A stretch of DNA of 64,000 nt from Bacteroidales bacterium (GTDB taxonomy: Bacteria; Bacteroidota; Bacteroidia; Bacteroidales; UBA932). The translations under genes were made by a program, and so were the position numbers. The notes under the pieces were generated by a model. It was not told the DNA's origin, did no database searches, and saw only the letters and a list, made by a program, of their open reading frames with translations. The stretch is from assembly GCA_017428945.1 (NCBI GenBank), contig JAFRPW010000006.1:1-64000 (forward strand). Reading direction: 5' to 3'. Positions 13,812-53,517 of this stretch are shown in pieces (position 1 is the first letter of the stretch; every line of letters begins with the position of its first letter).

Positions 13812-13955
13812 TTAAGACCAGGGGTTTTTAGGATTATAGTCATCAGTATTACCTGACTCGCAAACTATTTGCTCGAGGGAGACCTCGATGACTTCACTCG
13901 AGGGACTGTCATACGCAATCCTCTCGCCGGTTAGAGGTTTGTTTTCCTTTTTCAT
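13812..13955 (-). CDS. Short conserved-pattern peptide (47 aa)
   Basis: A 47-codon frame starting MKKENKPLTGER and containing YDSPSSEVIEV, then IVCESGNTDDYNP and a final NPWS. It shares a pattern with four other peptides of this window: Y-x-x-P, three residues, V or L, then about ten residues later a C-x-S-G-like motif and an acidic tail. It lies 18 bases in front of the fimbrillin-like beta-helix lipoprotein and 29 bases after the histidine phosphatase gene, all on one strand. It has no signal peptide. The repeated pattern and repeated position are the evidence that it is translated; its function is unknown. Confidence 0.7.
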   Translation of the reverse strand: MKKENKPLTGERIAYDSPSSEVIEVSLEQIVCESGNTDDYNPKNPWS

Positions 13956-13984
13956 AATACATTAGTTTTATTGTTAGAATATCA

Positions 13985-15238
13985 TTATTTGTTTCCAAGG
14001 TATTTCTTCACATCCTCCCAGCGGTAGTAGGGACCGAAGAAAGGTTCTATTTCAGGGACAAGAGTTTCCTGCTCGTTCGCCAGGAACTTGACGAGGACTT
14101 CACCCTTGCGGTTTTTGTAGAATATCATTTGCAGGTTGGAGGCAAATGTGCACAGCTTGGCACCCGGCCAGGAGCTGTACGCCTCCTGAGCAGTGAGCCT
14201 GGGATAGCCGAAGCCTTCCAGGCCAAGGTAAGAGCAGAGGCACATGAAGGGCAGGTCGTGCCCGAAAATAAGGTCCGCTGCAACGGGCGCTCCGGCGATG
14301 GCCTCATCGGCCTTCTTGACCATCATATCGGCCAAAACACCAACTTCACTCAGAGCCTCGTCACCATAGGGAACCGAGTTGCAATACGAAAGATAGCTCT
14401 GCAGGGCGTGCCTCGCATACGCCGTTTCAACAGCTTCCCATGGGAGGAAACTGTAGCGGTTCTCCTCTATATCATAGGCTTCCGTAAACCTTGCCAGATT
14501 AAAAATGGCGGAGATAAAACTCCTGGGCTTTCCGGTAAGCTGCCTTCCCCTGGCTGTGTCCGTAAAGAATCTCTCATAAACGGCCGTCGTATCAATGGGT
14601 ATATTTGTCAAAGCACTGTGGGCGTCATCGTAACCCTTTTGCTTGATTGATTTTGGGCTGTTTAAGGTGATTACGCGCTGATAAACCGCTCCACAATCAA
14701 AGGTAAAGGGGATGTCTTTCTTGCAGGCCTTGAGCGAGGAAGTGAAAGCCGCCATGCTCACAAGGCAGCGCGGCACATCCGATGAGATGACATGCACTTC
14801 CCCTTTCTTGAATACGCTTTTATAACGCTGATACATCCTTTTTGCAAGCTGCTCATGTTCGCGTGCTCCCCTGGATGTAAGGCGGCCGTCCATGCCGTTG
14901 TGTAATTCTATCATCTGCTTTGCACAGGCTAGGAGAGAATCACCCGAAGGAGTAATAATACCCTCATCCGCTGCGGCTTGCAAGCAATCCCTTAACAGAA
15001 CATAAGGCTTGTCCGACGAATGCGAACGAGAACCGTGCCTGCCGTAATGGCTGATATAGAAAGGCTTGAAGCCGCCAGGAGCGGGAGTGTCTTTAATAGG
15101 CAGGAACTCATAAGAATGGATGACGGCTGCAGCGCGCCGGGGATTTTCGCGTATGTATGCTTCCATCTGGGGCGACAGTTGGGCATAAGAAGCCAGAGTC
15201 ACTCCAAGAAAGAATAAGGTTGTGAGAAAACGTTTCAT
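13985..15238 (-). CDS. Secreted histidine acid phosphatase (MINPP/phytase-like)
   Basis: A 417-residue secreted protein (signal MKRFLTTLFFLGVTLASYAQ) of the histidine phosphatase clade 2. The phosphate-binding motif is ISHYGRHGSRSH (Arg67, His68) and the proton-donor motif is FGHDLPFM near residue 330. Family members remove phosphate from inositol phosphates, sugar phosphates or phosphoproteins. It is one of three paralogues in the window (others at 42537-43811 and 47555-48835). Its ATG overlaps the stop of the upstream GH2 gene (ATGA), so it is certainly part of the glycan operon. That position makes a glycan-related phosphate more likely than a stand-alone phytase role, but this is inference. 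Confidence 0.9.
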   Translation of the reverse strand: MKRFLTTLFFLGVTLASYAQLSPQMEAYIRENPRRAAAVIHSYEFLPIKDTPAPGGFKPFYISHYGRHGSRSHSSDKPYVLLRDCLQAAADEGIITPSGDSLLACAKQMIELHNGMDGRLTSRGAREHEQLAKRMYQRYKSVFKKGEVHVISSDVPRCLVSMAAFTSSLKACKKDIPFTFDCGAVYQRVITLNSPKSIKQKGYDDAHSALTNIPIDTTAVYERFFTDTARGRQLTGKPRSFISAIFNLARFTEAYDIEENRYSFLPWEAVETAYARHALQSYLSYCNSVPYGDEALSEVGVLADMMVKKADEAIAGAPVAADLIFGHDLPFMCLCSYLGLEGFGYPRLTAQEAYSSWPGAKLCTFASNLQMIFYKNRKGEVLVKFLANEQETLVPEIEPFFGPYYRWEDVKKYLGNK

Positions 15239-17127
15239 TCTTTTCCGAGTTTAGTTATCCAATTGCTGTTTTGGCTCTCTATCACATCCAGATTTATGGC
15301 CCTGATGACATCTGCATCCACTTTCTCCAACCTGTCATAGGTCATAAGGCCGTTAAGCTCCAGTTCCACATCCGTGGTCTGCGTGTAAACGGCTGCAGCG
15401 CAGCCAATATCTATAAGGGTCTTAAGCCGCTCTGCGTAAAGCCTGTAACGTCTAAGGAGTTCATCCGTGGTCTTGCACAGGCCGGAGTAACCCCAGTTCT
15501 GTCCTTCCGGCTTCCATATGTGACCTTCCACCAGATAGCCGATGCCACCGTATTCTCCAAGAACGTTGATCTTGGTCCTGTCGAATATGTTCATCCTGGG
15601 CTCCGGATAATGGTGGATATCAAGGATATCTCCTGAAAGGTGGAAATTGCCGCCAGATGCCTCATTGACAAGGCGTGTAGGGTCTTTCTCTTTTGTAAAC
15701 TTGACGACGTCTTCCGTGTCAAACTGCCCCCAGCCCTCATTGAAGGGCACCCAGACCACAATGCAGGGGAAACCTTTAAGGCAGTCGATGATTTCTCCCC
15801 ATTCCTTGTAAAAGTTCTTCTTCCAGTATTCCGGGACATCGCAGTCAGTCCCCCCGCGGAAGGAATTAAGGGCCCATACGTTTCTCTGGGCATCACCTAC
15901 ACCTTCCGGACGGGATGCGTTGTTTGTTTTGCTGTGGTCGGCTATGCAGGGCATATCCTGCCACACCATTATTCCCAGGACGTCACACCAGTAGTACCAG
16001 CGGGCCGGTTCCACCTTGATGTGCTTGCGAATCATGTTGAATCCCCATTCCTTTGTCTTTTCTATATCGAAGCGGAGGGCCTGGTCCGACGGTGCGGTAT
16101 AGAGGCCATCCGGCCACCAGCCCTGGTCAAGCGGACCGAACTGGAACAGTATCTCATTGTTCAGCGCCAGCCTCAGGGAACCTTGAGGGACGCTTTCTTT
16201 GTTTATTTCAAATGTATCGCTATCCATCCGGGCCGATATCTTCCGGAGGGCTGTATATCCGGCGACCTTGTCTGCCACTTTGCCTTTACGAAGAATGGAA
16301 ATGTCAAGGCCATAAAGATATGGATGTGAAGGAGACCAGAGTTCAGGTGCTGAAATTGCAATATCCACATCTGTTCCTTCAGCGCTGGCAAGGACGGCTC
16401 CGGACGGTTTCTCAGCACTGTAGCCTATACCTCCTTCCCTAAGTTCGACCCTTACCAAGTCGCCGTCCTTCAGACCTTCTGTTTCTACTTTTACGCTGAT
16501 GGAGGATTTATCAACATCGGCCACGGCCAGATATGACAGGATTCTGGTTTCTGGCACAGCCTCCAACCATACCGTCTGCCATATTCCGGTGACCGGTGTA
16601 TACCAGATGGTGCGTGGACGTGCAACCTGCTTTCCGCGAGGTTGCCAACTCTGGTCCGATGCATCCAGGACCTTTACCTTCAGTTGCTGTTGCCCCTTCT
16701 TTTTAAGAAGGTCTGTGATATCGAAAGAGAACGGCGCATAACCTCCGGTATGGACACCGGCCTTCAGGTCATTCACCCATACCTCAGCCTGCCAGTCTAC
16801 TGCGCCGAAGTGCAGCAGCACGCGCTTTCCTTTCCACTGCCTGGGAACAGTGAAACTGCGCTGGTACCAAAGAGCTTTATCCGGTCCCACCTGCTTCCGG
16901 ACGCCCGACAGTTTTGATTCTGCTGCGAACGGCACGACAATCTGACCCTCAGGGGAATCATACTGCTGCTCCTTGTCAAGAATGGCGTAATCCCACTGTC
17001 CGTTAAGGTTACTCCACTCTGCCCGCACCATCTGCGGACGCGGATACTCCGGAAGCGGAATATCGGCCTGTGCCCGTGTGACGGAACAGAAAAGGTTTAA
17101 TGTAAAGAATAATAAGAGCCGTTTCAT
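15235..17127 (-). CDS. GH2 family glycosidase (630 aa)
   Basis: A secreted GH2 enzyme (signal MKRLLLFFTLNLFCSVTRAQ) with the usual order: sugar-binding jelly-roll (about 30-190, WYQRSFTVPRQWKG), immunoglobulin-like domain (about 195-300) and TIM barrel (about 310-630). The acid/base is Glu464 in VPFNEGWGQFD and the likely nucleophile Glu525 in NVLGEYGG. The barrel motif GFNMIRKHIKVEP is typical of a Bacteroidetes subgroup annotated as beta-galactosidase-like. At 630 residues it lacks the extra C-terminal domains of classical LacZ. Beta-galactosidase, beta-glucuronidase or beta-mannosidase activity cannot be told apart by eye. It starts two bases after the GH28-like gene and overlaps the phosphatase gene. 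Confidence 0.9.
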   Translation of the reverse strand: MKRLLLFFTLNLFCSVTRAQADIPLPEYPRPQMVRAEWSNLNGQWDYAILDKEQQYDSPEGQIVVPFAAESKLSGVRKQVGPDKALWYQRSFTVPRQWKGKRVLLHFGAVDWQAEVWVNDLKAGVHTGGYAPFSFDITDLLKKKGQQQLKVKVLDASDQSWQPRGKQVARPRTIWYTPVTGIWQTVWLEAVPETRILSYLAVADVDKSSISVKVETEGLKDGDLVRVELREGGIGYSAEKPSGAVLASAEGTDVDIAISAPELWSPSHPYLYGLDISILRKGKVADKVAGYTALRKISARMDSDTFEINKESVPQGSLRLALNNEILFQFGPLDQGWWPDGLYTAPSDQALRFDIEKTKEWGFNMIRKHIKVEPARWYYWCDVLGIMVWQDMPCIADHSKTNNASRPEGVGDAQRNVWALNSFRGGTDCDVPEYWKKNFYKEWGEIIDCLKGFPCIVVWVPFNEGWGQFDTEDVVKFTKEKDPTRLVNEASGGNFHLSGDILDIHHYPEPRMNIFDRTKINVLGEYGGIGYLVEGHIWKPEGQNWGYSGLCKTTDELLRRYRLYAERLKTLIDIGCAAAVYTQTTDVELELNGLMTYDRLEKVDADVIRAINLDVIESQNSNWITKLGKE

Positions 17128-17129
17128 GT

Positions 17130-18440
17130 CTAATACAATAGCTTTTTCTCTTCCTCAATCCAACCGCGGCGTACATCCATCTCTTCCTGAGATAGCTTTT
17201 TCTCCTTGAATGATCCGCCCTCAACTACAACACTGGCATTTATACGTTCATACTCCGCCGGAATATCCACTTTCTTAAAGACTATATTTTGGAAAGGGGC
17301 CGCCGCCTTTGCCCAGAGATGGGAGTCGTTGGGTGCCGTACCGCTCACGCAGTCAAAAGTGATATCACGGATTGAGCATGACTTGGAGCGCATATGATGG
17401 ATACGAAGCAGTTCATTAGCCTCTACCCTGATATCACGGAACGCGATGTTGTCTATATCAGGGCCGCGTTCGCCCTTTGAGTATGCGCCCACGATATTGA
17501 AGGCGACGTTAGTGTCGGAAATGGAGATTCCTGACAGGACCGAATCGTGGATATGACCTTCGCCCACTCCTATGCGTATGGCATTGCAACTGGAGGAAAT
17601 AATACAGTTTTCAACCCTCACCCGGGCGCAATCCTGCGGTTTTTCCAGGAGATGGGCTCCGGACGCCCGGAGGGTGATGCAGTCGTCGGAAGTGTCTATT
17701 GTGCAGTTGGAAACAGTTACGTCCTGGCAGCGGTCTATGTCAATCCCGTCACCGTTGAATGTATGATAGTCCTTCCTGCGGGTATGCACATAGCACCCGG
17801 AGACAGTCACCTTGTTGCAGTTCAGGAGGAAACAGCTCCAGTAGGGAGAATCGGCCAGCTCTATATCCTTAATAGTGATATTGTCACTGTCCACGAACCA
17901 TACCATCTGGGAAGGACGTGCGGGGATAAGCGATTTATTGGAATATGGCGCCCCATTGGAATCCAGCAAAAACGCATCCGAATTGCCGTCAATCCGGCCC
18001 TTTCCGCTGAGGGTCACATTACTTACGCCCACACCAAGGATGAGATGTCCTCCGCTGATATAATCGCCCCATCCTATTTCAGCCTCGTTCTGAGGGCAGC
18101 AGTCGGCCGTGCAGTAATCCTTTATGTCAGGACTGCCTTTGATGGTGGCGCCCTCCTCAAGGTGGAACTCCACGTTGCTCCTGAGCCAGATGGAACCGCA
18201 GAGATAAGTACCCTTAGGCGCCGTCACTACTCCGCCGCCATTCGCGGCAACATGGTCAATTGCATCTTGGACGGCCTTGGTATCAAGCGTGCTGCCTTTT
18301 CCCGTGGCGCCAAAATCTTTCACGGACACCCTGCAGGGTTCCGTAGCCGGGTTGGGCGTATTATCATGAGAACTCACCTGTCCACTTCCGGAACAGGTCA
18401 GCGTCAAAGCCATCATTAACAGGCACAATAATGTCTTCAT
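17130..18440 (-). CDS. GH28-like (polygalacturonase-type) lipoprotein
   Basis: A 436-residue lipoprotein (lipobox around TLTCSGSG, Cys16) with a right-handed beta-helix of the pectin-hydrolase type. The entry segment VSVKDFGATGKGSTLDTKAV is characteristic. Acidic catalytic positions are present: Asp231 in FNGDGIDID and Asp252-Asp253 in TSDDCITLRAS. The GHG motif with the conserved His and the RIK motif are replaced by SSCNAIRIGVGEG, so it is a divergent member. It may hydrolyse galacturonan or rhamnogalacturonan side structures, or act on another uronic-acid glycan. Flanking GH2 genes and the downstream uronate pathway support a uronate-containing substrate. Confidence 0.85.
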   Translation of the reverse strand: MKTLLCLLMMALTLTCSGSGQVSSHDNTPNPATEPCRVSVKDFGATGKGSTLDTKAVQDAIDHVAANGGGVVTAPKGTYLCGSIWLRSNVEFHLEEGATIKGSPDIKDYCTADCCPQNEAEIGWGDYISGGHLILGVGVSNVTLSGKGRIDGNSDAFLLDSNGAPYSNKSLIPARPSQMVWFVDSDNITIKDIELADSPYWSCFLLNCNKVTVSGCYVHTRRKDYHTFNGDGIDIDRCQDVTVSNCTIDTSDDCITLRASGAHLLEKPQDCARVRVENCIISSSCNAIRIGVGEGHIHDSVLSGISISDTNVAFNIVGAYSKGERGPDIDNIAFRDIRVEANELLRIHHMRSKSCSIRDITFDCVSGTAPNDSHLWAKAAAPFQNIVFKKVDIPAEYERINASVVVEGGSFKEKKLSQEEMDVRRGWIEEEKKLLY

Positions 18441-18441
18441 T

Positions 18442-21060: not shown

Positions 21061-21066
21061 ATCCTT

Positions 21067-25374: not shown

Positions 25375-27303
25375 TTAGTCAAAAGTTATGTAAGAGACAA
25401 CCGGGAAGTGGTCAGAAGGGCACCAGGTATCATCTTCCACATCATAAGTGGTCCGGACAGTCCTGTAAGACTGGGCATTGACTGCGTTGGAGGACCCGTC
25501 GTGAAGGATGATATGGTCTATGCGGAACTGAGGGTATTTCAGATTCTTCATATAATCTGCGCCCCAGTTGCTGCCGGTCTCCGTGCCGGGATAATTGACG
25601 TAGAAACTGGACATGTTACCAGCATCATAAACCTGGTCATATGCATCGGCAAAACCTGCGGAATATAATGCGGTATAAAGAGGCTGTACCTGCGTTTTCT
25701 TGGTGTCGATATAGGGGCCGAAATTAAAATCTCCCACAACGATATAAGGAAGGGAGCCGGCCTTTGCGGCAGTGAAATAGATGAGGTTGTTAAGCAGCCT
25801 CAGGCGCCTGGCCGCAGCGGCTGCCTGGTCCGCGGCAGTGTATTCGCCGTCCACCTTTTCAGCACCTATTTCATTATATGTATGGTCCAGGGTGGACAAG
25901 TGTGTCACGAACAGATAGAACTGCTTGCCGGACACCTTATGGGTAAACTTGGCATACGCACAGGTGGTTTCAGGGTTGCCGCAATTATCGTATGCGTCCT
26001 TCCTGTTATCATAGTAAGTGTTGTCGGCCGAATGGGAGAGCCAGACATAGTCCTGGTCCGATACGTCAAACATCGATGTCTTGTAGGCATATCCGTCGGC
26101 ATATCGGTTATAGGTCTCATAACTGGGACTCAGCCATGTGCCTTCTTTCTTAATATCGTCCGGATTGTCCAACTCCCAGGTATAACCCGTAAAGCCCTGG
26201 GCTTCAGCCATGGTTTTCAGCGAATACGTCCCTCCGTTCTGGAAATTGGAGTCCAGTTCGTTGAATCCTATGATATCTGCGCCTGTACCGGCAATGGCCT
26301 TTCCCAATGCTTCGCGTACGTCGGCATTGGACAGATACATATACGATATGTCCCTGCTTTGATTCTCACGGGATTCCTGCTGGAAAACATTGTATATGGC
26401 CACAGTGATTCCGGGAGGCGTTGCCGTGGGCTCGCCGCCGTCTTCGGCCGTAAGGTCACTTATGGAAAGGAGGTTCTCCGTACGTCCTGCGGCATATGTA
26501 AAGCTGGTGAACTGGACCAGTTTGTTGGATTCAAGAGTGTAACCGCTGCCCCAGAACTTCAGGCGCATGAAAGCGCCGTCGTCCTGATAGACCAGGGCCT
26601 CGATTCCGGCAGCGTAGGTCTGTGCAGGAACTGCAATATAGAAATAGGTATCCGTATTACTGAGCGTGACGTCACAGTCATAGACAAGCGTTCCCGCAGT
26701 TCCGCCGGAGAATGCCCCGGTGAAACCATTTGCGTCTGTAGCAAGGGTGAAATCACCGCGGAGTTTCTCACTTCCCAGGCTGTTAAGTTCTATACGGTCA
26801 AGCGTTGCACTTCCTTTAACGGCAAAACCAATTAGACCGCAGAAATTACTGAGCTTGACATTGTATTTATCCCCGGATTTCTGGGCATTGCCGTAAGAAG
26901 CGGCGGCAGCGCCATCAAAGCTGCCAGCCACATAGTTCTGCGTGGACGGCAGGCTTATCACGTTAGCCGACGTGGTGCCGGGATAGAGCACTTTATATGG
27001 CGCCGACAGGGAGCCGCTGACGGTAAAGTCAACTTTCCTGGTGCCGTTTTCTCCCGCCGTTACGGCGTTGTCCGACAGGGTTCCGTTTACGGATACTTTA
27101 TCTCCGGTTTTCCAGAGCACTTCGCATACGCCGTCGCTTGGGGCGCCAAGCATGGTTTTGGTCTCCTGGCCGGAGACGGAAGCGCTGAGAATCATTGTCC
27201 CCTCATTGAGGTCTGCCTCAGAAAGGCCGTTCTTTGCGCAGCTGAGAGTTAACCCAAGTGCCATAGCGGTCAACAGACCGGTTTTAATATAATGGTTTAT
27301 CAT
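25375..27303 (-). CDS. EEP-family phosphohydrolase lipoprotein with fimbrillin-like N-domain
   Basis: A 642-residue lipoprotein (lipobox LTLSCAKN). Residues about 35-285 are fimbrillin-like (ETKTMLGAPSDG, VLWKTGDKVSVNG, KVLYPG, FYIAVPAQTYAAG), closely matching the N-domain of the next gene. Residues about 305-640 are an endonuclease/exonuclease/phosphatase (DNase I/sphingomyelinase-like) domain with the metal- and phosphate-binding motifs FNELDS, FVTHLS, VVGDFNFGP, RIDHIILHD and PSDHFPV all present, so it should be active on phosphodiesters or phosphomonoesters. Its ATG overlaps the TGA of the short peptide gene before it (ATGA, 27300-27303), linking peptide and lipoprotein translation. It lies just after susD. 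Confidence 0.9.
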   Translation of the reverse strand: MINHYIKTGLLTAMALGLTLSCAKNGLSEADLNEGTMILSASVSGQETKTMLGAPSDGVCEVLWKTGDKVSVNGTLSDNAVTAGENGTRKVDFTVSGSLSAPYKVLYPGTTSANVISLPSTQNYVAGSFDGAAAASYGNAQKSGDKYNVKLSNFCGLIGFAVKGSATLDRIELNSLGSEKLRGDFTLATDANGFTGAFSGGTAGTLVYDCDVTLSNTDTYFYIAVPAQTYAAGIEALVYQDDGAFMRLKFWGSGYTLESNKLVQFTSFTYAAGRTENLLSISDLTAEDGGEPTATPPGITVAIYNVFQQESRENQSRDISYMYLSNADVREALGKAIAGTGADIIGFNELDSNFQNGGTYSLKTMAEAQGFTGYTWELDNPDDIKKEGTWLSPSYETYNRYADGYAYKTSMFDVSDQDYVWLSHSADNTYYDNRKDAYDNCGNPETTCAYAKFTHKVSGKQFYLFVTHLSTLDHTYNEIGAEKVDGEYTAADQAAAAARRLRLLNNLIYFTAAKAGSLPYIVVGDFNFGPYIDTKKTQVQPLYTALYSAGFADAYDQVYDAGNMSSFYVNYPGTETGSNWGADYMKNLKYPQFRIDHIILHDGSSNAVNAQSYRTVRTTYDVEDDTWCPSDHFPVVSYITFD

Positions 27304-27443
27304 ATCGCAAACGTGGGTGTATCAGAATCAAGATCAAAGACTCCGGGCTCTATCGTATAGTCTTCTCCGGAGATGCATATCGGCGCCATACAGGAATCCA
27401 TACGGATTACCTCTGTCTGTGGAGAAATGTAGTTCTCTTTCAT
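27300..27443 (-). CDS. Short conserved-pattern peptide (47 aa), coupled to EEP lipoprotein
   Basis: A frame starting MKENYISPQTEVIRMD, with PICISGEDYT in the middle and an acidic tail (VFDLDSDTPTFAI). An alternative in-frame ATG at 27452 would add three residues. It shows the Y-x-x-P-x-x-x-V pattern and C-x-S-G motif shared with the peptides at 13812, 46111, 48935 and 53404. The TGA stop overlaps the ATG of the following lipoprotein gene by four bases, the strongest sign that this frame is really translated. It begins about 15 bases after susD. Function unknown. Confidence 0.75.
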   Translation of the reverse strand: MKENYISPQTEVIRMDSCMAPICISGEDYTIEPGVFDLDSDTPTFAI

Positions 27444-27458
27444 TTTGTTCATCAATAA

Positions 27459-44138: not shown

Positions 44139-46094
44139 TTACTCATCAACGGCGCAACGGACAGAGTTACCGCAAGCGGTACGATGCTGCCATTCGGGTT
44201 CAGATTTCCACTCGGCGTCATACCATATTTGCTGGTCATATGCATAACCAGTGGTGCTCTTATGTGCATTCCAAATCCTGGCCCTGTCATAAGCGTGAGC
44301 AACGCTACCGCCACTGTAATCGATATAACCTGCAAACGGGAATACAGCGGTACCAAGTTTCCACCAGCCATAAGTGCTATTGGGCTCCCAGCCATAAGAA
44401 GGATCCAAAGTGACCACTTTTGACCAAAGAGGATCGCTGCTGTTTCTGGCAGGGACACGATATCCGGGCGGGCAGGGATCATAGATTGACTTGTCTCCAC
44501 CTTCTGTCCACAGAGTTGTACTCTCAGGAGTCATCCAGTCACCCTTATAAGCCACATAGGTTGTAGGATTGGCGATAGACTGGGCTATCGTATACTGGGA
44601 TGTTGTTTCGCTCTTTGCGGTACCGGAATTCAGTGCCTGAGATGAGCTGTTGAATCTCTTTGATCCAAGGAACGGATCCTTACGGCCCCATTGATAAATA
44701 AGACCGAAGGAACGGGCGTCAACTGTTGTTTCTGATGCATCAGTATCTACAAGAGCGCCAAGGTTGCGACTCATAATATCCACGGAGGAAATACCATAAT
44801 CGTCTCTGGATATTGTTGTTGCAGGGACCCATATGTGCCAGCTCCATACAATCTCGTCAGAACCGTTCTTTGCTGCTATTAAAGCGTTTCCGGCGTGCAG
44901 GGTTGTAGGCATCTTGAAACAAATCTCATAGTAATCATTTGCATCCTGCTTGTCAAAATCTGCCTCAAGAATAACAGAATTAGCGGTTACATCCTGATCA
45001 TTATTATAAGACTCCCAAAGGATGGAAACGGAAGCAATCTCGCCAACGCCGGTTGTGCTATTACCTTTATAAGCTTTAAACTTGAACACCTTTCCTGCGT
45101 TGCCGGCGACGCTTGCATCAACAATGTAGCAGTTTGCCGTCCCTGACGCGCCCAGGTCTGTCGCTCCTGTAATTGCCGGATGTGTGGCATTGTGGTTAGT
45201 GGGGGCGACGTATTCGTGAACTGCTCCCGAGGGAAGGAGGCCAAGATTTACACAGTGGCCATGGGACAATGAGAACGATGAGTTTGTCGTAATATAATGA
45301 GTGTAAGCACCAGCTTTATAGAAACGGATTGTGAAGCCGCTCGTGAAATTCACTTCATTAGGAATATAAATGTAGTTGATCGTGGATCCATCTCCGACAA
45401 CGGGGCCAGAAACAACCGTCTTTGGTCCAATGGTACCATAAGATTCTCCTGGTTTCTTCAAATAGTTAGGAGAACTCACGTTAACCTCCACAAGATAATC
45501 ATCGTATCCAACAGTTTCATCATTGTTTCCGGAAAGTCTGTATTCATCAAAATCACCGGACACTTTAAACATAATGGCTCCACAGAGGTTGTTAAACGTA
45601 ATCTCACCACCAGCACTCATTCCGCCGGCAAGCAGAAGTTGGTTGGTCTCAGAGAATCTTGCACGAGCGCTACTATACCACATAGAATAGAAGCCCCAAT
45701 CGTCTGCAGGGTATGCTGCATTGTAAGGGAGTAGACCATCTGGGTCAGGCTCCAAACCAGAAAGATCCTCAGTGAAAACTGCAACTTTAGGATCGGCTAC
45801 TTCTGCCGCCGTTAAGGTGTGGATAACGGGAGAAAGAGGGGTTTCAGTATTGTTCTCGTGATTACGTTTACCATAAATCACAATCTTGTCACCTGCCTCC
45901 CATCCTGTATGACCGGCGGCATCAAGAGTAACCTTGGTGCCATTCTGGTCAGTCATTGTAGGGAATGCGCAAGTAATGGTGGTAAGCTGAGGGGATACCT
46001 CATTGTTGGGCTGATCAAATTCTACAGCTTTCTCGCAGGAAAGTGCTAAAACGGCTACGCAGAGGGAAGCCATAAAAAACTTTACATTCTTCAT
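44139..46094 (-). CDS. Lipoprotein: fimbrillin-like N-domain plus Fib_succ_major-type C-domain
   Basis: A 651-residue lipoprotein (signal MKNVKFFMASLCVAVLALSC) with an excellent AAGGAGG ribosome site. I reject a 16-residue N-terminal extension, which overlaps that site. Residues about 30-320 are fimbrillin-like (TKVTLDAAGH, WEAGDKIVIYG, YNAAYPADD). Residues about 335-651 form the C-terminal module shared with the lipoproteins at 56158 and 58329: TANCYIVDASV, AGNALIAAK, WSWHIWVPATTI, MSRNLGALVD, IYQWGRKDPF, YDPCPPGYRVPA and the terminal SVRCAVDE, typical of Fibrobacter-succinogenes-major-paralogue domains. Probably surface exposed; function unknown. A 42-residue peptide gene lies 16 bases in front. 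Confidence 0.87.
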   Translation of the reverse strand: MKNVKFFMASLCVAVLALSCEKAVEFDQPNNEVSPQLTTITCAFPTMTDQNGTKVTLDAAGHTGWEAGDKIVIYGKRNHENNTETPLSPVIHTLTAAEVADPKVAVFTEDLSGLEPDPDGLLPYNAAYPADDWGFYSMWYSSARARFSETNQLLLAGGMSAGGEITFNNLCGAIMFKVSGDFDEYRLSGNNDETVGYDDYLVEVNVSSPNYLKKPGESYGTIGPKTVVSGPVVGDGSTINYIYIPNEVNFTSGFTIRFYKAGAYTHYITTNSSFSLSHGHCVNLGLLPSGAVHEYVAPTNHNATHPAITGATDLGASGTANCYIVDASVAGNAGKVFKFKAYKGNSTTGVGEIASVSILWESYNNDQDVTANSVILEADFDKQDANDYYEICFKMPTTLHAGNALIAAKNGSDEIVWSWHIWVPATTISRDDYGISSVDIMSRNLGALVDTDASETTVDARSFGLIYQWGRKDPFLGSKRFNSSSQALNSGTAKSETTSQYTIAQSIANPTTYVAYKGDWMTPESTTLWTEGGDKSIYDPCPPGYRVPARNSSDPLWSKVVTLDPSYGWEPNSTYGWWKLGTAVFPFAGYIDYSGGSVAHAYDRARIWNAHKSTTGYAYDQQIWYDAEWKSEPEWQHRTACGNSVRCAVDE

Positions 46095-46110: not shown

Positions 46111-46239
46111 CTAGAAAATCCAATCAATTGAGAAATCATCAAGAATCATATCCGGAATCTCGCCTGACTCACAGAAATTAGTCTCCAAAGTAAAGCGCAA
46201 GAGCTCCACTTCGGGCGTTTCATAGGTTTTTAGTTTCAT
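46111..46239 (-). CDS. Short conserved-pattern peptide (42 aa)
   Basis: Starts MKLKTYETPEVELLRFTLE, continues NFCESGEIPD and ends DDFSIDWIF. The Y-x-x-P-x-x-x-L pattern and the C-x-S-G-E motif match the other four peptides. It is the first gene after a near-ideal promoter (46292-46322), so the peptide is transcribed at the head of the lipoprotein unit. I use the ATG at 46239; an upstream in-frame codon at 46302 would fall at the promoter's start point. No signal peptide. Function unknown. Confidence 0.72.
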   Translation of the reverse strand: MKLKTYETPEVELLRFTLETNFCESGEIPDMILDDFSIDWIF

Positions 46240-46322: not shown

Positions 46323-46338
46323 GCGCAAAAGCCACCAG

Positions 46339-47262: not shown

Positions 47263-47265
47263 CCC

Positions 47266-47553
47266 ATGGCACGAATCAGGTACATAGACCCAGAACTCAA
47301 AAAAGCCCTTGGCAAAGTGCCACCATCAATCCGACGGGAAGTCGGGTTGTCTTTTGATATTGCCGGGCGCATAAGTGAGATTCTCAAGCTAAAGCATCTG
47401 TCGCAAGCGGACCTGGCAAGGGCAGTGGGAAAGAAGCCTGCTCTGGTATCCCGCTGGCTTAGCGGCACACACAATTTCACAATTCAAACACTGTCCCAGA
47501 TTGAAGCCGCCCTTGGCGTCTCAATCATTCATGTCACCAAGGCCAGGAAATAG
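47266..47553 (+). CDS. XRE-family HTH antitoxin
   Basis: A 95-residue protein with a Cro/CI-type helix-turn-helix: ISEILKLKHLSQADLARAVG, KKPALVSRWLSGTHNFTIQT, LSQIEAALGVSI. The N-terminal 30 residues (IRYIDPELKKALGKVPPSIR) are the part likely to grip the toxin. It follows the toxin gene by three bases and would bind both toxin and operator. Its stop lies one base from the stop of the convergent phosphatase gene, leaving no room for a terminator between them. Confidence 0.85.
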   Translation: MARIRYIDPELKKALGKVPPSIRREVGLSFDIAGRISEILKLKHLSQADLARAVGKKPALVSRWLSGTHNFTIQTLSQIEAALGVSIIHVTKARK

Positions 47554-47554
47554 T

Positions 47555-48835: not shown

Positions 48836-48856
48836 TGGATAAATCCTGCGTTATTA

Positions 48857-48888
48857 CAAATTTAACCATCTTCACCAAATAAAGCAAA
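48857..48888 (-). promoter_or_regulatory. Promoter of the histidine phosphatase gene
   Basis: On the minus strand TTTG (48888-48885), twenty bases, TAAATTTG (48864-48857). This matches the Bacteroidetes consensus. It lies back to back with the promoter of the peptide gene at 48935. Confidence 0.7.
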
Positions 48889-48900
48889 TTGGAAAATCAC

Positions 48901-48908
48901 TATATTTG
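48901..48908 (+). promoter_or_regulatory. -7 box of the peptide/DUF4832 unit
   Basis: TATATTTG fits TAnnTTTG and lies 26 bases before the peptide ATG at 48935. No clear -33 TTTG is visible. Confidence 0.55.
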
Positions 48909-48934
48909 CGAAGTAACACAAAACTATCACACAT

Positions 48935-49084
48935 ATGAAAGTCACATATGTCAAACCGGACGCCGACGTCATTCAGCTGGACCTCCGGGACGGAACGCTT
49001 GCGCCCATGTCGGGCGGACTGGGAACCGGCAGCGATATGCTGGAACCGGATCTGGGACAGAACCCTTTCAATGTTTTAATCTAG
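48935..49084 (+). CDS. Short conserved-pattern peptide (49 aa)
   Basis: Starts MKVTYVKPDADVIQLDLRD, continues LAPMSGGLGTGSDML and ends with LGQNPFNVLI. It keeps Y-x-x-P-x-x-x-V and an M-S-G in place of C-x-S-G. The ribosome site of the next gene (TAGGAGGA) begins inside this gene's stop codon, so the two are tightly linked. It is the first gene after the TATATTTG box. This is the only plus-strand member of the five peptides. Function unknown. Confidence 0.72.
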   Translation: MKVTYVKPDADVIQLDLRDGTLAPMSGGLGTGSDMLEPDLGQNPFNVLI

Positions 49085-49095
49085 GAGGACGAGCC

Positions 49096-51861
49096 ATGAA
49101 GAAATATTTCATTCCCACCGTAATCGCCCTCCTGGCCGCCTGCACACAGGTAGAGAAGGAAAGCCCCGAGACCACTCCGGAGCCCGTCGTTCCCGCCGGA
49201 TACAAGGTCCTTACCATCAAGGCCACCAAGGCGGACGCCTCCACAAAGACGTCCTACGCCGGAGACAAAACCTTCTCCTGGTGCGTCGGGGACAAGATTT
49301 CCGTCATCTGCAACGACGGCTCCGCCAACTGCTGGCAGACCTTCACGGCCACAACCGCAGCGGCAACATCCTCGTTCACGGCCACCGTTCCGGACGGCGT
49401 CAACCTGGGCCCTATGGGGTCCGACTATAAAGTAGCGATGTACCCCGCCAGCAACGACCACGTCTATTCCGGCACCTGGAGCCTCAAGTACAACATCCCG
49501 GCAGAACGGGATTTCCGGGCCGCCTCCGGAGGGCACCGGGAGAGCGCCATCCCTATGTTCGCCTGGGGCCAGGACGACGACACCTACGCCTTCTCCAACC
49601 TCACCGGAGCCGCCAAGTTCACCTTCTCTGGCGTCCCCTGCCCGGCCGTAAAGATGACCTTCACCGTACCGGGCGTGAAGCTCAACGGCACATTCAGCCT
49701 CCTGTACGACACCATAGACAAGGCTAACTCGTCCAACGTCCACTGGAGCGTGGCAGGCGCCGGGGATGAGTCCGAGAAAACCGTCACCTATTATGCCGAC
49801 GTCACGGACGGAAATGTTTCCTTCTACCTCCCTTACGGAGAGGGAGGCATCTGGGGGTACAGTACCCTCACCCTCCAGGACGCCGCCACGGACGCCACCC
49901 TCTATAGCAACACTCACGTGGGTAACATATCCATTACCAAGAACCAGATTGCCGTACTGCCCACGCTGGACCTGAGCTTCAAGTCCGCCTTCGGGATAGA
50001 CTGGAGCGGGGTGGTAGCCTCGGCCAACGCCCACGCCACCTACAAGGCCATCAAGACCCTGAAGGCCACCGCCGATGACAACTACGTCTACTTCTACATC
50101 GAGGCGGATCCGGACCAGATGAGCCGCTCCAACAAGTACGACTGCCGTTTCCGCTGGTTCATTGAGGATCTTGCCGGCAGCACGGACTACTGGGGCTCGG
50201 AAAAGTACCGTGAGATTGACTCCGGCCACGACAAGTTCGCAGTCAAGAACGGTGATATCTATTTCAGCCCTTACGGCACCACTGCCTACACCGCCAACCT
50301 CCTGATGCATCCCTCCACCTGGTACTATGAGATCCGTATGGAAAGGAGCGTGGACACCGGACTTTCCGGAGCGGGCCCGGTAAAGATAGGCGTCGCCCTT
50401 GACGCAACTTACGTGGACAGCGAGGACAACTGGGGCAACTCCAACTCCTGGTACCCCTACGGCGTCATCCCCACCTACGGCACGGATATGTACGATCTTA
50501 TCCTGCCCTCCACCCTTAGCATCCCCTTCACGGAGGCCTCCGGCGAGGTCGCCAACCCGGAGCGCGGAATGATGAGCTACTCCAAGTTCACCTTCAAGGA
50601 CGACGACATCCCGGACGTTAAGAACATCCCGCTGGACTACACCGGAGAGAGCCTGGCCTTCCTCCTTTTCTACATCACCGACTATATGAACAAGGACCTC
50701 GACGCCGCGGCCACTGACTTTATAAGTGCCGAGTTGGACAAGGTCCGTGCGGCCAACAAGAAGGCCGTGCTGCGTTTCGCCTATACGGAAACCCACGTGG
50801 CCGACGAGCAGCACGAGGCCACGCCCACGCAGGTCCTTGCCCACGTAGACCAGGTTGCGGATATTCTGGAAGCCAACAAGGACATCATCTACACCGTCCA
50901 GGCCGGCTGGCTGGGCACCTACGGCGAATGGTATTACAAGACCAACAACAACGGCGAGTTCAAGCCTGGCTACACGGACTATTACCTCTATACCAAGGAC
51001 GGCAGTACGGTCACGGACTTCAACAACAACCACAAGAACCTCCTGGACAAGCTGCTTACTGCCGTTCCGGAGCCCATCCACATCGGTCTCCGAACGGCTT
51101 TCTACAAGAGGTATTACCTCTCTCCCGGGGCCATAGATTCCTGGACAACCATCTCCGACTGGGGCACTGGCGCCAATGACCGCCTTGGCTTCTTCAATGA
51201 CGGCATCCGCGGCTCTGACAGCGACGTGGGCACGTTCAACAGTTCCACGGACCGGGATATGTGGTACTCGCAGGGCAACTGGCTTGTCTGCGGCGGCGAG
51301 ATGTCGTACCGCAGCGCGGAAACTTTTGCCGCCCTCAGTGACGACCTCAAGGACTGCGACCTGGGCATCGAGGAGATGCAGAGGCAGCATCTGTCCTATC
51401 TGCACTACTCAGAGTCCAATGCTTTTATGGCAAAATGGATTGGTGAAGGCCGATTGGAGGACCTGAAGAAGATGCTTGGCTATCGCCTGGTGCTGGGAGA
51501 CGTAAATCTCGGTTATGCCAGTCTTGCTGCGGATGAGACTGTGAGGTACAGCATTGAGATCAAGAACACGGGCTGTGCGCCCGTGGTGTACCCCAGGCCG
51601 TTCAAGCTGGTCCTGCTGCATAGCGGCACGCCCACGGTGCTGGCAGACCTGGGCGATGTCAGGGACATCGCTCCCGGCGCCGGGTTCACCACCCTGACCG
51701 GCAGCTTTGACCTTCCAGCCGCCGTCACCGCCGGCGACAAACTCGCCATCTGGCTCCCTGACAACGCCTCCGGCCTCCGCTCCAACGCCGCCTACTCCAT
51801 CCGCCTCGCCAACACCGAAGTCACCTGGGACAGCGGCTATAACGTGCTTTATACCTTCTAA
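49096..51861 (+). CDS. Lipoprotein: fimbrillin-like N-domain plus DUF4874/DUF4832-type barrel
   Basis: A 921-residue lipoprotein (signal MKKYFIPTVIALLAAC). Residues about 30-290 are fimbrillin-like: STKTSYAGDKTFSW, CVGDKISVICNDG, VAMYPASNDH. Residues about 300-470 are a beta-sandwich with ADDNYVYFYIEADPDQMSRS, a possible carbohydrate-binding region. Residues about 475-921 match the DUF4874 barrel and DUF4832 end: GEVANPERGMMSYSKF, KKAVLRFAYTETHV, VQAGWLGTYGEWYY, HIGLRTAFYKRYY, then a beta-domain. Those families are suspected glycosidases, but catalysis is unproven here. It follows the 49-residue peptide gene by eleven bases. GC is higher than in the neighbouring minus-strand lipoproteins. Confidence 0.85.
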   Translation: MKKYFIPTVIALLAACTQVEKESPETTPEPVVPAGYKVLTIKATKADASTKTSYAGDKTFSWCVGDKISVICNDGSANCWQTFTATTAAATSSFTATVPDGVNLGPMGSDYKVAMYPASNDHVYSGTWSLKYNIPAERDFRAASGGHRESAIPMFAWGQDDDTYAFSNLTGAAKFTFSGVPCPAVKMTFTVPGVKLNGTFSLLYDTIDKANSSNVHWSVAGAGDESEKTVTYYADVTDGNVSFYLPYGEGGIWGYSTLTLQDAATDATLYSNTHVGNISITKNQIAVLPTLDLSFKSAFGIDWSGVVASANAHATYKAIKTLKATADDNYVYFYIEADPDQMSRSNKYDCRFRWFIEDLAGSTDYWGSEKYREIDSGHDKFAVKNGDIYFSPYGTTAYTANLLMHPSTWYYEIRMERSVDTGLSGAGPVKIGVALDATYVDSEDNWGNSNSWYPYGVIPTYGTDMYDLILPSTLSIPFTEASGEVANPERGMMSYSKFTFKDDDIPDVKNIPLDYTGESLAFLLFYITDYMNKDLDAAATDFISAELDKVRAANKKAVLRFAYTETHVADEQHEATPTQVLAHVDQVADILEANKDIIYTVQAGWLGTYGEWYYKTNNNGEFKPGYTDYYLYTKDGSTVTDFNNNHKNLLDKLLTAVPEPIHIGLRTAFYKRYYLSPGAIDSWTTISDWGTGANDRLGFFNDGIRGSDSDVGTFNSSTDRDMWYSQGNWLVCGGEMSYRSAETFAALSDDLKDCDLGIEEMQRQHLSYLHYSESNAFMAKWIGEGRLEDLKKMLGYRLVLGDVNLGYASLAADETVRYSIEIKNTGCAPVVYPRPFKLVLLHSGTPTVLADLGDVRDIAPGAGFTTLTGSFDLPAAVTAGDKLAIWLPDNASGLRSNAAYSIRLANTEVTWDSGYNVLYTF

Positions 51862-51878
51862 ATTCGCCCCATTTACGC

Positions 51879-51999
51879 TTTGGGTGATAAAGGTTGGCTT
51901 TTGCACCGCCTTCCTTTATCACCCAAAACTGTTTCTACAGGTTATGTCCGGTATTCAATGATAAAGGCTGGCCCTTGTCATATTGACTTTGGCCAGCCT
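51879..51999. terminator. Two hairpins between convergent genes
   Basis: TTTGGGTGATAAAGG (51879-51893) and its exact complement (51913-51927) form a fifteen-pair stem. AGGCTGGCC (51965-51973) and GGCCAGCCT (51991-51999) form a second of nine pairs. The second begins with TGATAAAGGCTGGC, a near copy of the first hairpin's left side. They lie between the ends of genes at 51861 (plus) and 52023 (minus) and probably stop transcription from both sides. Confidence 0.6.
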
Positions 52000-52022
52000 C
52001 TAAGAATTAACAATTGCAAGAA

Positions 52023-53387
52023 CTAATCTGCCTTGTAATATATTGTAATAGTTCCCTGTATTCTGTCACTCCAGACATTCTTCTGTTTTAATGCGAAGTG
52101 GGTATAATCGGTTGCTCCAGCCAGAACATAAGTTGTTGATGTTTGAGAATCTCCTGATCCTTCTGTCGCAGAATATGATATGGTTGTGCTGGAAGGATCA
52201 GCGGATGTCCCCGCATAAAGAATGTAATTGTCACGGTAGTATTTTCCCGTTGCCGTGTTGCTTACTACTATCTTCACAATTGTTCCAAGGGAGGTGTCGT
52301 TGTAAATACGTTCACTTCCGCCACCATCACCGGAGAATTTAATATAATCCCCATCTTTAACCACATAATATGAGTAGAAATCCAAGCCGCTGATTGTGAA
52401 TTTTGTGGCCGATGTTGCGGTACTGGGAAGAGATGAGGGACTGATGGCTACGGAGCTCAGTCCAGGATATCCATCAAAGCCTATTACATTCATATTAACC
52501 CGATACATAGTGTTGCGAGCAAGTGTCACATTTGCCAAACCACCAAGCGTGGTAGTCCTGGAACAAATCTCATCTCCACCAGAATCTTTAAATGTGAAAG
52601 TAAAGTTACCAGAAGGAGAAACATCGCAACCATACGGCAGGTAGAAAGTATATTTGCCGTCTACTCCGGGAGTAAAGCTATATGTTACAGACCTCTGCTC
52701 CCCATCATCACCAGTACCTGATGTATAATAGACTAAATCATTGGCGCTGTCATATGTTGTATAATAGCGACCGGCAAGATCACGACTATCATTTGATATA
52801 ACAAGTTGTCTTGCGGTGGACGGAATATTCGTAAACTTAAACCTTATCACGCTTCCCATATGTTTAAGATGATACGTTCCGTCAAAACTTGCCTTAAGGG
52901 TATGAGCCAGCATAGGAATGCCATCGGCACCACTTCCGGTATATTCGGTCGGCAACGTTATCGTTGTGCTTTCTTTATAAGGTTCAGACGATGACGGATA
53001 CAAGTCATTACAAATATTATAAGGATATATGGCCCAATATGCATAAGTACCACCTTCGGTTCCACCAGGCGTTCCGGTAAAAGAACCATCTCCTGACGTT
53101 GTTTCAAACTCGTATTTCTTATAACCGCCGTTGGAATAAAGAATACTGATCTTATCACCGGCTTCCCATCCAACAATTGCTTTCATCGTTCCGGTATCTT
53201 CAGTATAAGTTGTTTTTGTCTCCCCGCCTTCAATTGTGGCCTTAATCGTGACAATATTCTCAACTGGAGTAATCTCTTCAACTGTGTTTGAGTTCTCTTC
53301 AGTTATGTCCTCTTCGACGACAGGATGAACCTTTTCACAGGCATAAAACGCAAGAAGGACTGCAAATACGTAGATAATCTTTTTCAT
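52023..53387 (-). CDS. Fimbrillin-like lipoprotein without recognised cargo domain
   Basis: A 454-residue lipoprotein (signal MKKIIYVFAVLLAFYAC) with a GGAGGG ribosome site. I reject a 13-residue upstream extension. Residues about 45-300 are fimbrillin-like: ETKTTYTEDTG, VGWEAGDKISILYSNGG, YWAIYPYN, TFYLPYGCDVSPSGNFTFTF. The remaining ~150 residues (SSVAISPSSLPSTATSATKF, TISGLDFYSYYVVKDGDYIK) look like an IPT/TIG-like beta-domain ending TITIYYKAD. It resembles the N-domain of the 49096 protein. It may be a surface or fimbrial stalk protein. A 37-residue peptide gene lies 16 bases in front. Confidence 0.82.
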   Translation of the reverse strand: MKKIIYVFAVLLAFYACEKVHPVVEEDITEENSNTVEEITPVENIVTIKATIEGGETKTTYTEDTGTMKAIVGWEAGDKISILYSNGGYKKYEFETTSGDGSFTGTPGGTEGGTYAYWAIYPYNICNDLYPSSSEPYKESTTITLPTEYTGSGADGIPMLAHTLKASFDGTYHLKHMGSVIRFKFTNIPSTARQLVISNDSRDLAGRYYTTYDSANDLVYYTSGTGDDGEQRSVTYSFTPGVDGKYTFYLPYGCDVSPSGNFTFTFKDSGGDEICSRTTTLGGLANVTLARNTMYRVNMNVIGFDGYPGLSSVAISPSSLPSTATSATKFTISGLDFYSYYVVKDGDYIKFSGDGGGSERIYNDTSLGTIVKIVVSNTATGKYYRDNYILYAGTSADPSSTTISYSATEGSGDSQTSTTYVLAGATDYTHFALKQKNVWSDRIQGTITIYYKAD

Positions 53388-53403
53388 AGCAAAACCCTCC
53401 TTA

Positions 53404-53517
53404 CTAGATATTGTACTCTCCGCCAAGATCCATATTCTCGGGCGAACCGTTAAGTAAAACGGATTCCATTTGAACGTCGTAAACGATCGTTTCGGGTGAT
53501 GTGTACTCTTCTTTCAT
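53404..53517 (-). CDS. Short conserved-pattern peptide (37 aa)
   Basis: Starts MKEEYTSPETIVYDVQMES and ends LNGSPENMDLGGEYNI. It keeps Y-x-x-P-x-x-x-V; the C-x-S-G motif is replaced by L-N-G-S. It is the shortest of the five. It is the first gene after the promoter at 53598-53628, and its leader (53518-53597) contains an eight-pair hairpin (CACATAAG/CTTATGTG, 53554-53579). Function unknown. Confidence 0.68.
   Translation of the reverse strand: MKEEYTSPETIVYDVQMESVLLNGSPENMDLGGEYNI

What the first reader, a model, noticed from the sequence alone, without database searches (positions are those of the whole stretch)
13812..53517. Five short peptides, each encoded directly in front of a fimbrillin-like lipoprotein
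Seen in sequence: peptides of 37-49 residues at 13812, 27300, 46111, 48935 and 53404 share Y-x-x-P-x-x-x-[VL], a C-x-S-G-like motif (CESG twice, CISG, MSG, NGS) about 14-18 residues after the Pro, and a short acidic or Asn-rich tail. Every one lies 0-18 bases in front of a lipoprotein that starts with the same fimbrillin-like domain but carries different cargo (beta-helix, EEP enzyme, Fib_succ_major, DUF4832, none). Three are first genes after a promoter. Five of five is hard to explain by chance. Known: small uncharacterised proteins are common in Bacteroidales, and I know of no assigned function. Inference: they may be translation-coupling leaders, chaperone-like partners, or precursors of secreted or modified peptides acting with the lipoprotein.
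Basis: partly seen in the sequence, partly recalled or inferred. Interest (0 to 1): 0.85.

Follow-up and report, generated by a model that had tools for sequence, protein, structure and literature searches.

The report
Phosphopeptide precursors paired with surface lipoproteins
Gut bacteria of the Bacteroidales carry many tiny genes, most of them placed directly before a gene for an adhesin-like surface protein, and these tiny genes look like precursors of cut, phosphorylated and exported peptides, a pathway reported in 2026 from Bacillota and without a known role.

Summary
The window's genome has 15 such peptide genes; 14 precede a fimbrillin-like lipoprotein gene. In a context-blind scan, 103 of 120 untruncated matches are followed by one (background 9 of 335 ORFs). 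The peptides are under purifying selection (dN/dS about 0.2).

They share a YxxP leader and a conserved Ser, usually 19 residues after the Tyr, mostly within [AC]-x-S. This resembles precursors of linear polyphosphorylated peptides (LPPs), RiPPs published in May 2026 as restricted to Bacillota and of unknown role. The matching machinery is present: PqqD-like RRE, SipW-like peptidase, HprK-like kinase, NTP transferase, MsbA-like exporter. The RRE lies within 6 kb of a peptide in 7 of 20 family genomes; at order level 8 of 8 genomes with peptides have it, against 2 of 141 without.

The part after the inferred cleavage site co-varies with the partner lipoprotein (r 0.59), unlike leader (0.21) or signal peptide (0.15). 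Best reading: each lipoprotein has its own co-translated, trans-matured, exported acidic (phospho)peptide partner. Chemistry and partnership are inferred, not shown. I call it LPP-like: the full LPP leader consensus is not met.

The parts
13812..13955 (-). LPP-like precursor peptide 1 (47 aa), YDSP leader, CES motif
11022..13793 (-). partner 1: fimbrillin-like lipoprotein, 923 aa, Chlam_PMP (beta-helix-like) cargo; gap 18 nt
27300..27443 (-). precursor peptide 2 (47 aa from the MKEN start; an ATG three codons upstream at 27452 is also possible), YISP leader, CIS motif
25375..27303 (-). partner 2: fimbrillin-like lipoprotein, 642 aa, Exo_endo_phos-like C-terminal part (below Pfam cut-off); overlaps the peptide stop by 4 nt
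46111..46239 (-). precursor peptide 3 (42 aa), YETP leader, CES motif
44139..46094 (-). partner 3: fimbrillin-like lipoprotein, 651 aa; AGGAGG before its ATG; gap 16 nt
48935..49084 (+). precursor peptide 4 (49 aa), YVKP leader, atypical APMS motif
49096..51861 (+). partner 4: fimbrillin-like lipoprotein, 921 aa, DUF4874 + DUF4832; AGGAGG before its ATG; gap 11 nt
53404..53517 (-). precursor peptide 5 (37 aa), YTSP leader, atypical NGS motif
52023..53387 (-). partner 5: fimbrillin-like lipoprotein, 454 aa; AGGAGG before its ATG; predicted structure matches Bacteroidales adhesins and fimbrillins; gap 16 nt

Best explanation
The peptides are precursors of an LPP-like RiPP system, in most cases with one precursor per fimbrillin-like surface lipoprotein. 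Steps: (1) peptide and lipoprotein genes are adjacent or overlapping, so they are made together. (2) A discrete PqqD-type RRE binds the Y-x-x-P leader. (3) An HprK-like kinase phosphorylates the conserved Ser, which by homology is core residue 3. (4) A SipW/Sec11-like peptidase removes the leader in front of [A/C]-x-Ser. (5) An MsbA-like ABC protein exports the short acidic core; an NTP_transf_5 protein may modify it further. (6) The core meets its own lipoprotein at the cell surface as a ligand or subunit. In the window's genome the maturation genes would act in trans from other places: S26-PqqD-ABC at C35:99592-101965, HprK-like at C9:7845-8933, NTP_transf_5 at C14:114200 and C16:74288; the 15 precursor genes are scattered. 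Shown by sequence here: the genes, their pairing, selection, linkage and co-occurrence with the module, and the co-variation. Inferred from the published LPP pathway: steps 2-5. Inference alone: step 6.
For: Pairing: 14 of 15 in the own genome and 53 of 65 in the family set pass a lipoprotein HMM built from other loci; context-blind scan 103 of 120 untruncated matches (background 9 of 335 in the first 80 loci). Selection: dN/dS 0.20 over 23 pairs chosen by the neighbour's similarity (dS near saturation). Module in one locus with peptide and lipoprotein, checked with HMMs (peptidase, kinase and RRE models were partly trained on these loci): G006 PqqD-NTase-ABC-peptide-fimbrillin-HprK; G023 PqqD-NTase-ABC-HprK-S26-peptide-fimbrillin; G011 and G049 (one genus) HprK-S26-PqqD-ABC-peptide-fimbrillin; G009 peptide-fimbrillin-HprK-S26-PqqD-NTase-ABC; G037 peptide-fimbrillin-PqqD-HprK-S26; G170 peptide-fimbrillin-ABC-S26-PqqD-HprK. 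A peptide lies within 6 kb of the PqqD in 7 of 20 family genomes, 0.57 expected. Family level: 20 of 24 peptide genomes have module-type PqqD versus 4 of 35 without (p 5e-8; by genus 11 of 11 versus 2 of 14). Order level: 8 of 8 versus 2 of 141 (the same 8 were found beforehand with an own-family profile). Homology: RRE profile finds lasso RRE TfuB1 in the PDB; peptidase profile finds Sec11A/C and signal peptidase I and keeps SM.P, HR and GD (85, 90, 74); kinase keeps SGxGK[ST]T and DD. Ser at Y+19 in 54 of 64 family and 27 of 31 order peptides, mostly with A or C two residues before; LPP has its phosphorylated Ser in core A-Q-S, Y+18 by the published motif. Core-lipoprotein r 0.59 versus leader 0.21, pre-leader 0.16, signal peptide 0.15.
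Against: The full LPP consensus YxxPxVLxHQxIxFETxxS is not met (ours Y..P..EV.E...E.GFA.S). The conserved Ser is one residue further from the Tyr than in LPP, only 7 of 15 own-genome peptides have it at Y+19 and 7 of 15 have A or C two before; two window peptides lack [A/C]-x-S. Four family genomes have peptides but no PqqD found (G021, G026, G033, G051) and four have module-type PqqD but no peptide (G002, G027, G030, G058; the G030 gene has an in-frame stop). In G168 only 1 of 15 peptides precedes a fimbrillin-like gene and in G076 none of 3, so the lipoprotein partnership is not universal for this peptide family. Core co-variation may partly reflect co-inheritance, since the linked controls may saturate faster. 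The peptide profile matched nothing in the PDB up to E=10. HprK homology is weak against curated models. No expression or mass-spectrometry data.
Confidence: 0.74

Rival explanations
1. Coupling leaders only: the peptide ORF exists to deliver ribosomes to the lipoprotein start (reinitiation at a strong SD in a phylum that, from recall, seldom uses SD), and the peptide itself is inert.
For: Short or overlapping gaps; SD match of 5 of 6 or better at 8 of 15 lipoprotein starts versus 4 of 77 other genes and 0 of 15 peptide starts.
Against: dN/dS about 0.2 before and after the Ser (78); conserved Y..P and Ser; co-occurrence and shared loci with RRE/peptidase/kinase/exporter; many partner starts in other genera show no SD by eye; members in G168 not followed by a lipoprotein.
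Confidence: 0.12
2. RiPP-type precursor whose product acts independently (signal, antimicrobial or cofactor); the lipoprotein is only a co-regulated neighbour, or the receptor/protection for the product.
For: The same peptide family occurs without a fimbrillin-like next gene in G168 and with module genes but no fimbrillin between in L140 and L213; published LPPs often lie at capsular polysaccharide loci, and such lipoproteins are not mentioned in the sections I read.
Against: Core co-varies with the lipoprotein, and the pairing recurs in several families.
Confidence: 0.25
3. [A/C]-x-S is the signal-peptidase -3/-1 cleavage site, so the core starts after the Ser and this Ser is not phosphorylated.
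For: Module peptidase is of the signal peptidase I type (74, 90), whose usual -3/-1 rule (recalled) fits A-x-S.
Against: The position is mostly Ser rather than a mixture of small residues; in LPP the similar peptidase cuts before A-Q-S and Ser3 is the phosphosite.
Confidence: 0.15
4. Cytoplasmic chaperone or escort for the fimbrillin-like domain.
For: 1:1 gene pairing and core co-variation with the lipoprotein.
Against: No reason for linkage to RRE, peptidase, kinase and exporter; the peptides are short, with a leader-like half.
Confidence: 0.04

Closest known systems
Linear polyphosphorylated peptides (LPPs), lpp clusters of Bacillota (PMC13381572, Nat Commun May 2026)
   Same: Discrete PqqD-like RRE, archaeal-type/SipW-like peptidase, HprK-like kinase, NTP transferase, MsbA-like exporter; precursor with YxxP leader, a conserved Ser just after the (here inferred) cut, variable C-terminal part
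   Different: Phylum Bacteroidota (the paper's discussion calls LPPs restricted to Bacillota); leader consensus differs; Ser at Y+19 not Y+18; up to 15 dispersed precursors with maturation genes elsewhere in the genome; precursors placed directly before fimbrillin-like lipoproteins, where the paper reports capsule loci
Lasso peptides with kinase/NTase (paeninodin, pseudomycoidin, Bsf; PMC8498205 and PMC10368454, passages seen)
   Same: YxxP leader motif recognised by B1/RRE (Tyr -17, Pro -14); HprK-like kinase and nucleotidyltransferase; our RRE profile finds TfuB1 and, weakly, TbiB1
   Different: No cyclase C or B2 peptidase noticed beside the module; SipW-like peptidase instead; acidic core
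Fimbrillin-like lipoproteins / type V fimbriae (Pfam Mfa_like_1, Mfa2-4, BACOVA and BF cell-adhesion proteins)
   Same: The partner proteins: lipobox, TK/TR..W..GD.I..A.YP..P..Q pattern, fold matches
   Different: Several carry unrelated C-terminal cargo; no small paired peptide came up for them in the searches made here

Membership tests
LPP (linear polyphosphorylated peptide) RiPPs | discrete PqqD-like RRE | tested here: met
   own genome C35:100073-100339, PF05402 E 2e-15 (56, 62); 10 of 149 order genomes at E<1e-20 (81)
LPP RiPPs | archaeal/SipW-type signal peptidase with Ser-His catalytic residues | tested here: met
   TIGR02228 best hit, below its cut-off; SM.P, HR and GD invariant in 13 sequences; PDB hits Sec11A/C and SPase I
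LPP RiPPs | HprK-like kinase | tested here: met
   profile A10 finds C9:8400-8927 E 7e-69 in own genome; SGxGK[ST]T and DD; curated models only weak
LPP RiPPs | NTP transferase | tested here: met
   PF14907 in own genome at C14 and C16 (98) and beside the module in L140 and L213 (59)
LPP RiPPs | MsbA-like exporter | tested here: met
   ABC_membrane + ABC_tran directly after PqqD
LPP RiPPs | precursor with YxxP leader and variable C-terminal part | tested here: met
   alignments and counts
LPP RiPPs | full leader consensus YxxPxVLxHQxIxFETxxS | tested here: not met
   consensus of 144 peptides is Y..P..EV.E...E.GFA.S
LPP RiPPs | phospho-acceptor Ser at core position 3 | tested here: inconclusive
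   Ser at Y+19 in 54 of 64, 27 of 31 and (own genome) 7 of 15, versus Y+18 in LPP (117, 110, 111); phosphorylation not testable
LPP RiPPs | no macrolactam cyclase | not tested
   none noticed among the neighbours listed in 64, 67, 84; genome not searched for it
LPP RiPPs | RRE falls in the LPP clade | not tested
   LppB sequence not at hand; no tree made
LPP RiPPs | linear polyphosphorylated product | not testable with these tools
   needs mass spectrometry
Lasso peptides | B2 transglutaminase-like peptidase and C cyclase in the cluster | tested here: inconclusive
   not noticed in module neighbourhoods; PF13471 and PF00733 not searched
Fimbrillin-like (partner proteins) | Pfam Mfa_like_1 PF13149 | tested here: inconclusive
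   6 of 75 partner N-terminal parts at E<=0.01 (40)
Fimbrillin-like (partner proteins) | fimbrillin/adhesin fold | tested here: met
   one model: Foldseek top hits 3ufi, 3t2l, 4rdb, 4h40, then 3pay, Mfa3, Mfa4 (116); TM-scores low (0.2-0.5) and model mean pLDDT 64 (109)

The most novel reading that the evidence does not exclude
Bacteroidales decorate or assemble their adhesin-like surface lipoproteins with dedicated, one-to-one, exported polyphosphopeptides: each surface protein is made together with its own precursor, all precursors are matured by one trans-acting RRE-peptidase-kinase set, and the mature acidic peptide is the specific ligand, plug or subunit of that lipoprotein. This would be a first function for LPP-type peptides and a new principle of surface-protein pairing.
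Probability: 0.42. Interest if true: 0.95.

Novelty: new variant of a known kind. Interest (0 to 1): 0.85.

Why it matters
LPPs were reported in May 2026 as restricted to Bacillota, with an unknown role. Here the same toolkit is found in another phylum, with up to 15 precursors in one genome, most of them tied to a surface lipoprotein, which makes the role testable. It would give biochemical meaning to a class of unannotated Bacteroidales small proteins (no Pfam or NCBIfam model matched 79 of them beyond chance) and to many fimbrillin-like lipoproteins.

Tried and rejected
Contig breaks at peptides (C3/C8, G034:C9, G052:C4, G014:C18) first suggested invertible or shuffled DNA. In C3 two divergent peptide genes flank a tyrosine-recombinase-like gene and share a 67-nt inverted repeat of 78%, but the peptide genes are too divergent elsewhere for recombination sites; kept as noticed in passing, no enrichment test made.

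My first reading of [A/C]-x-S as the signal-peptidase cleavage site was demoted to a rival after reading PMC13381572.

Peptide profile against the PDB: nothing up to E=10. The own-genome-only lipoprotein HMM was too narrow: 28 of 60 other partners at E<0.01 against 7 of 267 background ORFs; replaced by one built on 72 of the 75 rows of A5 (rows L106, L114, L125 dropped as doubtful) for the pattern loci, and by one built on the pattern loci for the own, family and order sets. Next genes were sought with their ATG from -60 to +300 nt of the peptide stop; 101 of the 103 passing in the pattern set lie within 60 nt. Five pattern loci (L176, L186, L192, L206, L232) are loci also used in the first HMM and were left out of the second. 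Forty loci (L246-L285) were not printed and were analysed later: 36 of 38 with a next gene pass. For dN/dS, a first set of 61 pairs chosen by peptide similarity (0.25) is biased low and is not used. For the co-variation tests 85 and 87 peptides were kept: those with a recognisable Ser, a core of 6 or more residues and a lipobox-bearing, fimbrillin-like next gene; G168 and G076 left out. A7 omits G168 and G076 peptides, near-duplicates and 13 further rows. Three PqqD genomes (G017, G019, G038) were set aside by eye as another PqqD type. The E<1e-20 line at order level was drawn after seeing the gap (2e-22 to 3e-14).

Papers: PMC13381572 abstract, outline and sections 6, 7, 11, 12 read whole, passages elsewhere; PMC10352776, PMC8498205, PMC10368454, PMC7533575 and PMC12710340 passages only; others search listings. 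That no paired peptide for fimbrillins and no Bacteroidota LPP was found in print rests on searches of this library only.

On rereading the calls I mended: 'nearly all' in the family set is now 53 of 65 (126); the gap range; G034:C5 (L090) added as an exception; 'near-invariant' Ser softened; locus labels checked by HMM.
Full report
1. The observation. None matches Pfam or NCBIfam beyond chance (nor do the 79 peptides of A4, 41, 42). A profile of the five finds more in the same genome, and a second round plus one weak hit accepted by its context (C36) gives 15 distinct loci. With an HMM built only from loci of other genomes, 14 of the 15 next genes pass at E<1e-3; the one at C8 is another kind of secreted protein.

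2. Not chance, and not local. In 59 genomes of the family (own included), 35 have a match at E<=1. I fetched all 65 non-own matches at E<=0.1. In 53 of 65 the next gene passes that HMM, with gaps of -56 to +70 nt and, in three G003 loci, 138-146 nt. Of the 12 others, three score 0.006-0.04 and look alike (L067, L080, L089), L082 has such a lipoprotein about 390 nt away and L113 ends with its contig, L090 has another secreted protein, L125 is a false match, and L093, L106, L107, L114 and L116 have none. It gave 120 loci with 124 matches: 103 are followed by a protein passing an HMM of the lipoprotein N-domain at E<1e-3 (101 of them within 60 nt), 11 by another protein, 6 by none, and 4 are cut off. 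Among other ORFs of the first 80 loci 9 of 335 pass. Named isolates among the 120 loci include Alistipes sp. An66, Prevotella sp. 10(H), Bacteroides rodentium, Coprobacter secundus and Dysgonomonas sp. Marseille-P4677; the B. rodentium partner did not pass. Two matches look like chance (L228, L260).

3. Selection. For 23 pairs chosen by similarity of the next gene (not of the peptide), pooled dN/dS is 0.20, about the same before and after the Ser (0.20 and 0.21). Pooled dS is above 1, so the ratio is rough, but pairs with few changes point the same way.

4. What they travel with. The exceptions gave the clue: in L140 and L213 the peptide heads a row of an HprK-like kinase, an S24/S26 peptidase, a PqqD protein and an NTP_transf_5 protein. 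The window's genome has one strong PqqD, in a row S26-like peptidase, PqqD, ABC exporter at C35:99592-101965, an HprK-like gene at C9:7845-8933 (the contig that also bears two peptide pairs) and NTP_transf_5 genes at C14 and C16. In other family genomes the module sits in one locus with peptide and fimbrillin-like gene: G006, G009, G011, G023, G037, G049, and outside the family G170. In G014 two peptides lie 2.5-3.6 kb from PqqD. A peptide lies within 6 kb of the PqqD in 7 of 20 family genomes that have both; 0.57 expected; G011 and G049 are one genus.

5. Co-occurrence. Family: 24 of 59 genomes have peptides (A7, E<=0.01), 27 have any PqqD, 24 a module-type one (three of another type set aside by eye). 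Both: 20; peptide only: 4; PqqD only: 4, one with an in-frame stop; Fisher 5e-8, which ignores relatedness; by genus 11 of 11 against 2 of 14 (75). Order (149 genomes, drawn evenly): peptides in 8 (43 with an own-family profile; 82 with A7), module-type PqqD at E<1e-20 in 10, which include all 8; the next best score is only 3e-14 (81); Fisher 9e-12 (84). Two of the 8 are of the window's genus; the others are of six further families. A8 was trained on family members plus L140 (G076) and L213; the other order-level hits outside the family were not in its training.

6. What the parts are. The PqqD profile's best solved relative is TfuB1, a lasso RRE, with TbiB1 far weaker. The peptidase profile finds Sec11A/C and signal peptidase I and keeps SM.P, HR and GD. 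The kinase keeps SGxGK[ST]T and DD (86) but scores only weakly against curated models. The partner lipoprotein's predicted structure (pLDDT 64) has Bacteroides adhesins and Porphyromonas Mfa proteins among its best matches.

7. Link to a known pathway. PMC13381572 (May 2026; sections 6, 7, 11, 12 read) describes LPPs: the same five kinds of protein; precursor motif YxxPxVLxHQxIxFETxxS; cleavage after T by the SipW-like LppS with LppB; HprK-like LppK phosphorylates Ser3 of a core starting A-Q-S; restricted to Bacillota by its discussion, role unknown; the word-start Bacteroid has 0 occurrences in its text. In the present peptides Ser stands 19 residues after the Tyr in 54 of 64 family and 27 of 31 order peptides, preceded two residues earlier by A or C in 53 of 61 and 28 of 30 of those with a Ser at 18-21; in the own genome 7 of 15 are at 19 (all 15 within 18-21) and 7 of 15 have A or C. 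I therefore read [F/I/L/V] | [A/C]-x-Ser as cleavage site and phospho-Ser. The full LPP consensus is not met, so I call the system LPP-like and do not file it as LPP.

8. Leader and core. The part from A/C1 onward (median 18 aa, net acidic, Trp among the last five residues in 55 of 87) is similar where the partner lipoproteins are similar (r 0.59), whereas leader (0.21), pre-leader (0.16) and lipoprotein signal peptide (0.15), equally linked, are much less so; among dissimilar partners it is still 0.37 (p 0.002); within genomes p 0.01 on 37 pairs. This fits a leader read by shared machinery and a core fitted to its lipoprotein, though co-inheritance with faster saturation of the controls is not excluded.

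9. Translation. In the own genome 8 of 15 partner starts have a near-perfect AGGAGG, against 4 of 77 other genes in the own-genome stretches held and 0 of 15 peptide starts. This supports coupled synthesis but, by eye, many partner starts in other genera lack it.

10. Against. In G168 1 of 15 peptides precedes a fimbrillin-like gene and in G076 0 of 3, although both have the module; in the other order-level genomes outside the family it is 7 of 8. The peptide-module link is thus broader than the peptide-lipoprotein link. Four family genomes lack a detected PqqD. Nothing here shows phosphorylation, cleavage, export or binding.

11. Verdict. Real, widespread and not ordinary: an LPP-like RiPP pathway in Bacteroidota whose precursors are mostly paired with surface lipoproteins. 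Searches of the library brought up no description of it.

Noticed in passing
L127 (G000:C3:36706-38086) and L128 (C8:1-184): Two divergent peptide genes flank a tyrosine-recombinase-like gene and share a 67-nt inverted repeat of 78%; the contigs end inside one peptide gene with a 141-base overlap. Possible phase-variable or recently duplicated locus.
   Followed up: partly
L148-L160 (G168), L138-L139 (G076): Members of the same peptide family without a fimbrillin-like next gene and, in G168, with another C-terminal end (SYRNSLWGDDE, WSDYEN), 15 fetched from a genome that also has the module.
   Followed up: partly
L328 (G104:C471), L330 (G084:C11), L331 (G142:C158): More distant PqqD proteins in other Bacteroidales families, beside HprK-like (L328, L331) and S26-like (L331) genes or beside a small YxxP-like ORF (L328: KYRKIYIKPEVEKI..; L330: MKKKYFRPSIIKC..); the class seems broader still.
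   Followed up: no
L170, L209: In two loci the peptide precedes an M48-like peptidase lipoprotein (CGVVSFTGRKQ..) instead of a fimbrillin-like one (family named from recall).
   Followed up: no
L324 (G135:C2:79011-82274), L327 (G108:C75): Module-type PqqD in genomes without a detected peptide; G135 has the row HprK-like, S26-like, PqqD, NTase-like, ABC-like by eye. Its precursor is unknown.
   Followed up: no
window 44139-46094, 49096-51861, 52023-53387: AGGAGG sites before the partner lipoproteins, part of an excess in the genome (8 of 15 against 4 of 77 other genes); from recall this phylum seldom uses them.
   Followed up: yes
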